38,838 nucleotides of DNA from Hassallia byssoidea VB512170 (lineage in GTDB: Bacteria > Cyanobacteriota > Cyanobacteriia > Cyanobacteriales > Nostocaceae). The translations under genes and the position numbers were made by a program. Below, in pieces: positions 1-25,880 of the stretch. Under the pieces are notes generated by a model that ran no database searches, was not told where the DNA came from, and saw only the letters and a list, made by a program, of their open reading frames with translations. The stretch covers positions 1 to 38,838 of the forward strand of contig NZ_JTCM02000025.1 in the NCBI RefSeq assembly GCF_000817785.2, read 5' to 3'. Position 1 is the first letter of the stretch. Every line of letters starts with the position of its first letter.

Positions 1-96
1 AAAAATGGACAGGCTTCATCCTTTGTGACTCGCTATCGTGTTGAGGATCTTTAAAACAAGCCTGTCCATTTTTGTCTACATGAGTGTGAAACCCCA
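1..96. repeat. 95-bp hairpin element, copy 1 (cut by window edge)
   Basis: The arms at 1-16 (AAAAATGGACAGGCTT) and 58-73 are perfect reverse complements and enclose a loop of about 41 nt. A conserved tail follows, ending in GTGAAACCCCAC. The left end is cut off by the window. Related copies lie at 5378-5492 and 25692-25803, and the last abuts a RAYT transposase gene. It is read as a non-autonomous mobile element related to that transposase. The copies are seen directly; mobility is inferred. Confidence 0.75.
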
Positions 97-5236: not shown

Positions 5237-5385
5237 AGGGAGAGGGGGGGACAAGGAGAGGGGGGACAAGGAGGACAAGGAGGACAAGGGAGACAGAGGG
5301 ACAAAAAAAATAATTCTTTCCCCCATCTCCCCATCTCCCCATCTCCCCATCTCCCCATCTCCCCATCTCCCCCACTCCCCTTGGG
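5237..5385. repeat. STRR block: GACAAGGAG array then CCCCATCT array
   Basis: A GGACAAGGA-type array (about 5245-5305) is followed by about nine CCCCATCT-type units (5320-5372). The first family recurs inside the gyrA-like gene (about 7745-7795) and at 35.5 and 38.7 kb. Confidence 0.8.
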
Positions 5386-5492
5386 CTAAACCTGGACAAA
5401 TATGGACAGGCTTCATCAAAAAATAGTCGTGAAGGATCGATGATCTACAAAACAAGCCTGTCCATATTTGTCTATTATTTGTGAAACCCCAC
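5378..5492. repeat. 95-bp hairpin element, copy 2
   Basis: The arms at 5395-5413 (GACAAATATGGACAGGCTT) and 5454-5472 are perfect 19-nt reverse complements. The left flank CCCCTTGGGCTAAACCTG matches the sequence next to the RAYT gene in copy 3. The right flank TTTGTGAAACCCCACT matches copy 1. Relative to copy 3, two positions in the stem differ and both are compensated on the other arm. Together with the STRR block it fills the gap between the TPR and response-regulator genes. Confidence 0.8.
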
Positions 5493-25164: not shown

Positions 25165-25641
25165 CCCTAAATCAATCAACTCTACCTCTAATAACCCCGG
25201 TTGTCCCATATAATTACGGTAACTCGAATAGCGCCAATGAGCCGGATCATCTATATAACCACGTTTCACCGGATTATTATGGATATAATCCAACTTCTGT
25301 TTAAATATTTCCTCATCCAAAATAGCTTGTGGATGAAAACCTTCTTGCCAAACCTGATATTCTTGTTTTGTCTTATGTTTGAGTTTGTAGAATTCAAATT
25401 GATTAAGAATATAGCTAAAGTTATTTTTCTTAAGTAAGTCAATAATACAACGAGCCGTAAATGATTTAAAATCGCCTACTTCTTTAGATAAACTTGCGGC
25501 TGACGCAATTAAATGGAGATGATTCTCCATAATTACGTAACCATACAACTTTAATCGTTGCTGTCGTTGAAGAAAATTTAGAGAATTGAAAATAATTTCT
25601 GCGAATTCAACTTTACCAAACAGTGGCATCCAATTTACCAC
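25108..25641 (-). CDS. REP-associated tyrosine transposase (RAYT, Y1_Tnp)
   Basis: 177 aa from GTG 25641, a single-strand HUH-type transposase. The metal-binding HxH is in VIMENHLHLIAS and the catalytic Tyr is probably in FKQKLDYIHNNPVKRGYID. HWRYSSYRNYMGQPGLLEV is the usual C-terminal family block. The frame stays open upstream to 25728 and reads GRNRYHVLGTQPHFLTCTV, which looks like the missing first beta strand of the domain. The real start is therefore probably near 25695-25710 at a non-ATG codon, or the 5' end is altered. The last about 19 residues (from GETEPHRRH) are encoded by a REP. REPs flank both sides and hairpin copy 3 abuts the 5' end. Confidence 0.85.
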   Translation of the reverse strand: MVNWMPLFGKVEFAEIIFNSLNFLQRQQRLKLYGYVIMENHLHLIASAASLSKEVGDFKSFTARCIIDLLKKNNFSYILNQFEFYKLKHKTKQEYQVWQEGFHPQAILDEEIFKQKLDYIHNNPVKRGYIDDPAHWRYSSYRNYMGQPGLLEVELIDLGETEPHRRHCQPESGNELR

Positions 25642-25691: not shown

Positions 25692-25803
25692 GTCCCTTGG
25701 GCTGACCCAGGACAAAAATGGACAGCCTTCATCCGAAAATGTCGTGGGGGATCGAGGATCTAGTAAACAAGGCTGTCCATTTTTGTCTACTTTTTGTGAA
25801 ACC
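25692..25803. repeat. 95-bp hairpin element, copy 3, abutting RAYT
   Basis: The arms at 25711-25729 (GACAAAAATGGACAGCCTT) and 25769-25787 are perfect 19-nt reverse complements. The left flank CCCTTGGGCTGACCCAG overlaps the 5' end of the RAYT reading frame. The right flank ends TTTTTGTGAAACCC. The G/C pair near the loop is inverted relative to copies 1 and 2, and both arms have changed. Confidence 0.85.
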
Positions 25804-25821
25804 CATAGTGTTACCTTATTA

Positions 25822-25880
25822 TAGCGAGGCAGAGCCACAAGAGATGCATTCCCAGCAGTCGTGCTGGGAACGAGAAAACG
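25822..25880. repeat. REP palindrome, 5' side of RAYT
   Basis: A small stem CGAGGCAGAGCC and a main stem CATTCCCAGCA-GTCG-TGCTGGGAACGAG, in inverse orientation to the REPs at 25064-25164. It completes a REP bracket around the RAYT gene and hairpin copy 3. Confidence 0.75.

What the first reader, a model, noticed from the sequence alone, without database searches (positions are those of the whole stretch)
25692..25803. Three-copy hairpin element with compensatory stem changes, linked to a RAYT gene
Copies at 1-96, 5378-5492 and 25692-25803 share a 19-bp perfect stem (16 bp visible in copy 1), a loop of about 40 nt and conserved flanks. Copy 2 differs from copy 3 at two stem positions, and in each case the partner base on the other arm has changed too (A/T to T/A and C/G to G/C). 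Copies 1 and 3 differ by the same G/C inversion. This pattern means the fold is under selection. Copy 3 lies directly at the 5' end of a RAYT transposase gene, and copy 2 keeps the CCCCTTGGGCT flank that is the start of that gene. The simplest reading is a transposable hairpin moved by this RAYT and distinct from the classical REPs also present.
Basis: partly seen in the sequence, partly recalled or inferred. Interest (0 to 1): 0.75.

Follow-up and report, generated by a model that had tools for sequence, protein, structure and literature searches.

The report
Mobile hairpin that landed in RAYT
A short hairpin-shaped piece of DNA has spread through this cyanobacterial genome and one copy has landed in the start of a transposase gene; the signs point to a different enzyme, of the IS607 type, as its likely mover.

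Summary
The three window copies belong to a large family: an arm pattern (up to 2 mismatches) has 166 hits in this genome against 0 for its reversed control, and a covariance model matches 150 of 150 scored candidates. The RAYT interpretation fails. In same-genus G001 (Spirirestis) the 94%-identical RAYT begins CACTATGGGACGC without hairpin; in the window a 108-bp insertion splits codon 2, with GGG at both junctions. The RAYT is the target: of nine homologous loci compared, only this one has the hairpin, while all nine have a REP-like palindrome. Other empty sites and a nested copy agree. In 38 copies with both ends read, C-runs flank both ends on the same strand, never GG; two GCC/CCC copies suggest a 2-bp CC core; a relative (type F) uses GG. 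This is the published signature of IS607 serine transposases. Two IS607-like genes here have GGACA-N5-GGACA just upstream, as the arms do; 12 readings with broken stems keep GACA-N6-GACA. Best reading: a miniature element, probably IS607-mobilised. The mover is inferred, not shown.

The parts
25694..25696 (+). left junction CCC (proposed core CC = 25695-25696; a single GGG on the other strand in the G001 empty site)
25697..25710 (+). left tail of copy 3 (TTGGGCTGACCCAG), class A
   Evidence: tail pattern at 71 places in the genome with up to 2 mismatches, control 0
25711..25729 (+). left arm of copy 3, with two GGACA motifs 10 bp apart (the first from 25710)
25730..25768 (+). loop core of copy 3; the motif TCGTGGGG.ATCG.GGATCT recurs in other copies, in both orientations relative to the tails
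25769..25787 (+). right arm of copy 3
25788..25801 (+). right tail of copy 3 (TACTTTTTGTGAAA)
25802..25804 (+). right junction CCC; overlaps the original RAYT start codon (ATG on the minus strand at 25806-25804)
   Evidence: comparison with G001 L075
25108..25686 (-). REP-associated tyrosine transposase gene cut off from its first codon by copy 3; no ATG/GTG/TTG in frame between the stop inside the element and GTG at 25641
   Evidence: NCBIfam NF047646 E=3.8e-26
25825..25876 (.). REP-like palindromes upstream of the RAYT (GGCTCTGCCT part found; the CGTTCC..GGGAA part not found by the script's pattern in the window)
5378..5489 (+). copy 2: CCC, left tail 5381-5394, arms 5395-5413 and 5454-5472, right tail 5473-5486, CCC 5487-5489
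1..94 (+). copy 1, cut by the contig start: left arm 1-16, right arm 58-76, right tail 77-91, CCC 92-94

Best explanation
The hairpin is a non-autonomous miniature mobile element of about 106 bp: left tail, subterminal inverted arms of 17-19 bp, a 40-nt core, right tail. It inserts at CC (usually CCC) by exchange over a two-base core that ends up at both junctions, in one orientation. Copy 3 is an insertion into codon 2 of a RAYT gene, which it separates from its start. The likely mover is an IS607-type serine transposase supplied in trans, binding the GGACA motifs repeated 10 bp apart in the arms. Shown: copies at unrelated sites, empty sites in relatives, junction bases, orientation, the RAYT as target. 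Inferred: the two-base size of the core (few informative copies), the identity of the transposase, its binding to GGACA, and a double-stranded circular intermediate.
For: Empty sites: RAYT in G001; L131 in G002 with exactly one CCC; L107 in G002 and L113 in G001 and G004, with base differences at the site. A class B copy nested in a class A loop: target TTGGGCATCG became TTGGG-element-GGGGCATCG (L117/L227). Same-strand junctions: 28 of 30 class A and 7 of 8 class B copies have CCC on the left, 38 of 38 CCC on the right, none GG. The two class A exceptions have GCC on the left and CCC on the right (L122, L167); the G014 homologue of the L122 gene fits a 2-bp core at protein level. Type F: GGG before the tail in 9 of 9, GG after it in 6 of 7 whose right end was found. 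No other target preference is evident (base counts, no test). Published IS607 features match: insertions at GG, (G)GG preferred and nothing else, GG at both termini, subterminal imperfect inverted repeats, short direct repeats (PMC6188088: passages and introduction; PMC4058570 passages). Two IS607-like tnpA genes of this genome (C101, C144) have GGACA-N5-GGACA just upstream of their conserved start; in about 230 kb of this genome (overlaps not removed) 80 distinct places hold that pair, and 4 do not continue as a hairpin arm: these two and two in one GGACAAAGGA tandem repeat. The nearest plasmid relatives of the C144 TnpA include genes annotated as IS607 family transposase. MITEs linked to IS607 have a precedent in Staphylothermus marinus (PMC2678158 passages).
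Against: No autonomous element with these tails was found; the smallest contig seen is 3,072 bp, so a repeated IS could be missing from the assembly. The ends of the two IS607 elements could not be placed, and no GG/CC lies 13-14 bp outside their GGACA pair as it does in the hairpin. The C101 gene shows no ATG/GTG/TTG start between the pair and its conserved part. The other 2 of 4 short IS607-like tnpA loci of G000 lack the pair. The G001 assembly has copies but no short Resolvase-type gene (2 matches, in frames of 532 and 442 aa). The pair also overlaps what looks like the tnpA promoter. Of five plasmid relatives looked at, none has it within 300 bp upstream of tnpA. Near-perfect pairing with covarying spacer bases is not required by a double-strand mechanism. 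Classes C and D have no GGACA pair. Class E right ends are CCC in 8 of 11 only.
Confidence: 0.55

Rival explanations
1. The hairpin is a REP-like element moved by a RAYT or other Y1 (HUH) transposase as single-stranded DNA; perhaps not by this RAYT but by another.
For: Strong hairpin with covariation; strand-specific insertion; five RAYT-family loci in the genome.
Against: The window RAYT is an insertion target, and the RAYT loci compared carry a different REP-like palindrome. The Y1_Tnp family matches 3 loci in the genome, one truncated beside a class A copy at a contig start. IS200/IS605 elements end in different left and right sequences rather than in one shared dinucleotide (recalled). Readings with a broken stem are frequent (24 of 75; 12 of 35 interior).
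Confidence: 0.13
2. Another orientation-reading recombinase (IS110-type with bridge RNA, or a tyrosine recombinase) moves the element.
For: A shared core at both ends and one orientation also fit these enzymes (recalled).
Against: IS110-type insertion needs a longer target match (recalled); none is evident beyond CC/CCC in 72 left (type F rows included) and 57 right class A flanks. No search for IS110 or tyrosine recombinases was made.
Confidence: 0.15
3. An ordinary DDE-transposase MITE with a 3-bp target duplication.
For: Inverted arms and CCC at both junctions, single in the empty site.
Against: A non-palindromic CCC target would be entered in both orientations; 38 of 38 copies show one. 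Two copies have unequal triplets (GCC/CCC). The arms lie about 14 bp inside the ends.
Confidence: 0.07
4. The hairpin is mainly a functional RNA or terminator kept by selection on its fold.
For: Covariation and a conserved loop core.
Against: Scattered sites, gene interruption and empty sites in relatives. At gathering score the window has one Rfam match, a tRNA elsewhere; eight other loci gave only sub-threshold microRNA matches. Broken-stem copies recur.
Confidence: 0.04

Closest known systems
IS607 family (serine transposase TnpA, with TnpB)
   Same: (G)GG target with no further preference, the same dinucleotide at both termini, subterminal rather than terminal inverted repeats, short direct repeats near the ends (PMC6188088).
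   Different: No coding gene; classes A, B and E use CC on the strand on which type F uses GG; the arms are near-perfect palindromes.
IS607-linked MITEs of Staphylothermus marinus
   Same: Miniature elements with inverted repeats, several copies, interrupting genes, in a genome whose transposable elements are IS607 (PMC2678158 passages).
   Different: About 260 nt and similar to DNA upstream of the transposases; here only the short GGACA repeat is shared.
REP/RAYT systems (GTAG and CGTC REPs, REPINs)
   Same: Hairpin repeats in many copies; a RAYT gene is adjacent to one copy; GTAG REPs occur in cyanobacteria (PMC3733652 passages).
   Different: 108-bp insertion with a 19-bp stem and 40-nt loop, CC core, no constant GTAG foot; the adjacent RAYT is interrupted and has its own REP-like palindrome.
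Cyanobacterial MITEs (Nezha; Anabaena sp. 90 MITEs)
   Same: Short, folding, gene-interrupting repeats; the Anabaena 90 set has no IS with similar inverted repeats in its genome (PMC3542288 passages).
   Different: Sequences not compared here; Nezha is known to me only from recall and from mentions in two papers.
Small dispersed repeats of Nostocales (Elhai 2008)
   Same: Very small mobile repeats nested in other repeats (recalled).
   Different: About 21-27 nt (recalled); the paper is not held.

Membership tests
IS607-type miniature element | Insertion at GG/CC with the same dinucleotide at both junctions and once in the empty site | tested here: met
   clean to the base in two empty sites (RAYT/G001, L131/G002)
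IS607-type miniature element | No target preference beyond (G)GG | tested here: met
   base counts, by eye; third C in 28 of 30 class A left flanks
IS607-type miniature element | Short direct repeats and subterminal inverted repeats at the ends | tested here: met
   GGACA-N5-GGACA in left arms of classes A, E and F, CGACA-N5-GGACA in B; not in C and D
IS607-type miniature element | Ends shared with an autonomous IS607 element of the same genome | tested here: inconclusive
   GGACA-N5-GGACA upstream of tnpA at C101 and C144, but tails not shared and ends not placed
IS607-type miniature element | Moved by TnpA | not testable with these tools
   needs an experiment
REP/RAYT system | Hairpin flanks RAYT genes across relatives | tested here: not met
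   1 of 9 loci compared, and that one is an insertion
REP/RAYT system | Constant GTAG or CGTC foot | tested here: not met
   feet vary: AGTAGAC in the window copy, AATAGAC, CCTAGAC, ATCAGAC in others
DDE MITE with target duplication | Either orientation relative to the duplicated target | tested here: not met
   38 of 38 one orientation

The most novel reading that the evidence does not exclude
A superfamily of serine-transposase-driven miniature hairpins in Spirirestis, Scytonema and Rhizonema cyanobacteria in which the crossover dinucleotide has switched between GG (type F) and CC (classes A, B, E), and in which a conserved 40-nt core is inverted between the arms from time to time, so that tails, arms and core evolve as separable modules.
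Probability: 0.4. Interest if true: 0.65.

Novelty: new variant of a known kind. Interest (0 to 1): 0.5.

Why it matters
It shows that a transposase gene next to a repeat need not be its mover: here the repeat has interrupted the transposase gene. If the IS607 reading is right, the family offers dozens of natural insertions, some with empty sites in relatives, from which the core, the target rule and the binding motif of a little-studied transposase class can be read, and a compact substrate for testing that class.

Tried and rejected
RAYT as mover: rejected by the empty site, the comparison of RAYT loci and their own REP-like palindrome. Y1_Tnp survey: three loci; one is truncated beside a class A copy; the ends of the other two were not studied. 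A left-tail match without the usual arm (C203:132) was followed as a possible autonomous end; its inner 150 bp matched only itself and part of one other contig, so it was dropped. Other arm hits that looked unpaired (C47, C80, C129, C31) proved to be copies with an enlarged loop, an altered right arm or a nested copy. Rfam: nothing but a tRNA in the window at gathering score, only sub-threshold matches in eight other loci. No match to copy 3 in plasmids or phages, and none in viral contigs with a left-end pattern. A test of 2-bp against 3-bp duplication by reading frame did not discriminate, since both models give the same length. Twelve joined sites were searched in ten genomes, the window's own among them; seven alignments were read: L131, L107 and L113 (two genomes) as above, L110 and L118 imperfect, L134 with unrelated DNA between the flanks. 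The other six sites gave no spanning match that I read, L119 having a weak one in repeat-like sequence. A helix inside the loop (ATCC/GGAT): one of 4 pairs with a change on both sides, not claimed. Trichormus IS607: one GGACA 52 bp upstream and TGTCT-N5-TGTCC downstream of tnpA, suggestive only. An earlier count of the GGACA pair was made on a small set with some overlap and two loci of another genome; the recount replaces it and brought in the tandem-repeat case.

Full report
The thing itself. The three window copies share an inverted arm (GACAAAAATGGACAGCC in copy 3), a loop of about 40 nt, a right tail (TA.....TGTGAAA) and, in copies 2 and 3, a left tail (TTGGGCT..), with CCC at every junction that is visible. 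Many matches lie at contig ends, so the repeat probably broke the assembly and one element can be counted twice; my rough estimate is about a hundred elements. Several loops are identical (9 readings of one kind, 7 of another), which suggests recent spread.

Covariation. On 25 diverse copies, 10 of 19 stem pairs change on both sides, well above shuffled and slid controls. But of 75 readings in this genome 51 have equal and 24 unequal arms; of the 35 with at least 60 bp on both sides, 23 and 12. Twelve readings share one kind of broken arm (4 mismatches; interior examples L122, L125, L157), and there both arms keep GACA-N6-GACA; the other twelve unequal ones do not keep it on both arms. So part of the family spreads with the repeated GACA motif kept and the pairing partly lost. 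Equal arms could come from selection on the fold or from one arm correcting the other; I cannot tell these apart.

The RAYT. In G001 the 94%-identical homologue begins CACTATGGGACGCAGC; the window has CACTATGGG, the element, then GGGACGCAAC. The insertion is 108 bp and splits codon 2; upstream of the remaining frame there is a stop inside the element and no ATG/GTG/TTG before GTG at 25641. One search found a match in 22 of 39 genomes (own included); I compared the window and the eight closest loci. Only the window has the hairpin within 350 bp upstream; a GGCTCnGCCT-type palindrome lies there in 9 of 9 (one mismatch allowed) and a CGTTCC...GGGAA palindrome (three mismatches allowed) in 7 of 9, not in the window or L080. 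G001 was identified as Spirirestis rafaelensis WJT71-NPBG6 by equal contig lengths (149801 and 54989); family Tolypothrichaceae. The window's own strain is not named.

Borders and target. A clean empty site for L131 in G002 has one CCC where the filled site has two; L107 (class E) in G002 and L113 (class B) in G001 and G004 also lack the element, with base differences at the site. A class B copy sits in the loop of a class A copy: TTGGGCATCG became TTGGG, element, GGGGCATCG (L117/L227), which a 2-bp GG core explains if the element brings one G on each side. In copies with both ends read, class A has CCC on the left in 28 of 30 and on the right in 30 of 30; class B in 7 of 8 (the other, L112, has CCCT) and 8 of 8; none has GG. 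The two class A exceptions have GCC on the left and CCC on the right, so the third C on the right probably belongs to the element and the exchanged core is CC; the G014 homologue of the L122 gene agrees at protein level. The script found no class E copy with both ends, so E rests on single ends: CC on the left in 11 of 11, CC on the right in 10 of 11, CCC on the right in 8 of 11. Beyond the core no position stands out by eye.

Variants. The same core occurs with other tails and arms (classes B, B', C, D, E) in this genome or in G001, G003 and G004. Relative to the tails it lies in both orientations in class A (27 rows unflipped, 18 flipped) and B (6 and 7) among 76 rows; the other 18 rows had mixed, other or no labels, and the 27 include one chance row (L093) and two class C rows (L057, L066). 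One loop sequence occurs flipped in class A (3) and unflipped in class B (1); in the other cleanly labelled rows a loop kept one orientation. So flips look inherited and occasional. A wider relative, type F, with tails GGGTTGGGATGAACCC and AAAATG[TA]AGCGG and longer loops, occurs in Rhizonema and Scytonema MAGs (9 of the 11 stretches found by one exact pattern, two of the 9 without a right end and two with the same right flank; the other two stretches are Spirirestis class A copies), and one was seen in each of G000, G001 and G116. Among 148 genomes of the order, this one included, 4 have a model match at E <= 0.001 (stricter filters); by DNA search 4 of 20, this one included.

Mechanism. An oriented, two-base core shared by both ends with no other evident target preference is unlike a DDE transposase or an IS200/IS605 element (the latter recalled) and is what has been reported for IS607: all insertions at GG, (G)GG preferred, nothing else, GG at the termini, subterminal inverted repeats and short direct repeats (PMC6188088: passages, introduction; PMC4058570: passages). 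This genome has 7 Resolvase-domain matches, four of them in short frames (190-221 aa) that I take for IS607-type tnpA; relatives of the C144 protein in plasmids are annotated as IS607 family transposase. Two of the four, with the same helix-turn-helix stretch (LGVNERTLRRWE), have GGACA-N5-GGACA just upstream. In about 230 kb of this genome (overlaps not removed, and chosen largely for hairpins) the pair occurs in 80 distinct contexts; 76 continue as a hairpin arm, two lie in a GGACAAAGGA tandem repeat, two are these. I therefore infer that a TnpA of this kind binds the arms. Against it: the IS607 ends could not be placed, no shared tails were found, the other two tnpA loci lack the motif, G001 shows no short gene of this kind, five plasmid relatives show no such pair within 300 bp upstream, the C101 gene has no standard start there, and the pair overlaps a likely promoter.

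Known work. REP/RAYT and cyanobacterial REPs were read in passages (PMC3733652). MITEs in a genome with IS607 elements, similar to DNA upstream of its transposases, are reported for Staphylothermus marinus (PMC2678158 passages). Anabaena sp. 90 has 147 MITEs without a matching IS (PMC3542288 passages). The passages seen of PMC10969869, PMC3718332, PMC6004678 and PMC3852290 name no IS607-mobilised MITE of a bacterium. Seven literature searches listed nothing that I recognised as this family; most results were seen as listings only, and subscription journals and ISfinder were not searched, so this is not a claim that it is undescribed.

Verdict. A real, apparently recently active miniature mobile element.

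Noticed in passing
L017-L019, L028, L029, L037-L039, L126, L128, L136, L138-L140, L144-L146, L151, L163; window 77-91: Short replacement modules recur inside hairpin copies (CACTCATTG for CAAAAATGG; GAACGCTTGTG or GAACTATGAGTG at the arm; ACATGAGTG in the right tail). Their origin is unexplained.
   Followed up: no
L134, L147-L150, L153, L154, L178-L181: A small repeat of about 25 nt (CTCCTTCGGAGACGCTAGCGCGAACAT and variants) sits at about the same place in the loop of several copies, like a nested very small repeat.
   Followed up: no
L227, L177: Hairpin elements inserted into other hairpin elements; the G-run of the loop core is a target in L227.
   Followed up: partly
L011/L164 (G000:C168:1-331): A class A copy lies against a truncated IS200-like Y1 transposase gene at a contig start, possibly a second transposase gene cut by the element.
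   Followed up: partly
L236-L239, L241: Some type F copies carry nested GC-rich palindromes (such as CTGCCGGGGGAAGCTTCCCCCGGCAG) in the loop.
   Followed up: no
window about 255-400: Tandem repeat of about 21 bp (GAAACTTCGAGTTGAAAGGCT).
   Followed up: no
window 5320-5377: CCCCATCT-type short tandem repeat directly beside copy 2.
   Followed up: no
L268 (G000:C101), L269 (G000:C144): In both IS607 elements a second long reading frame runs through tnpA in another frame and on into TnpB-like sequence.
   Followed up: no
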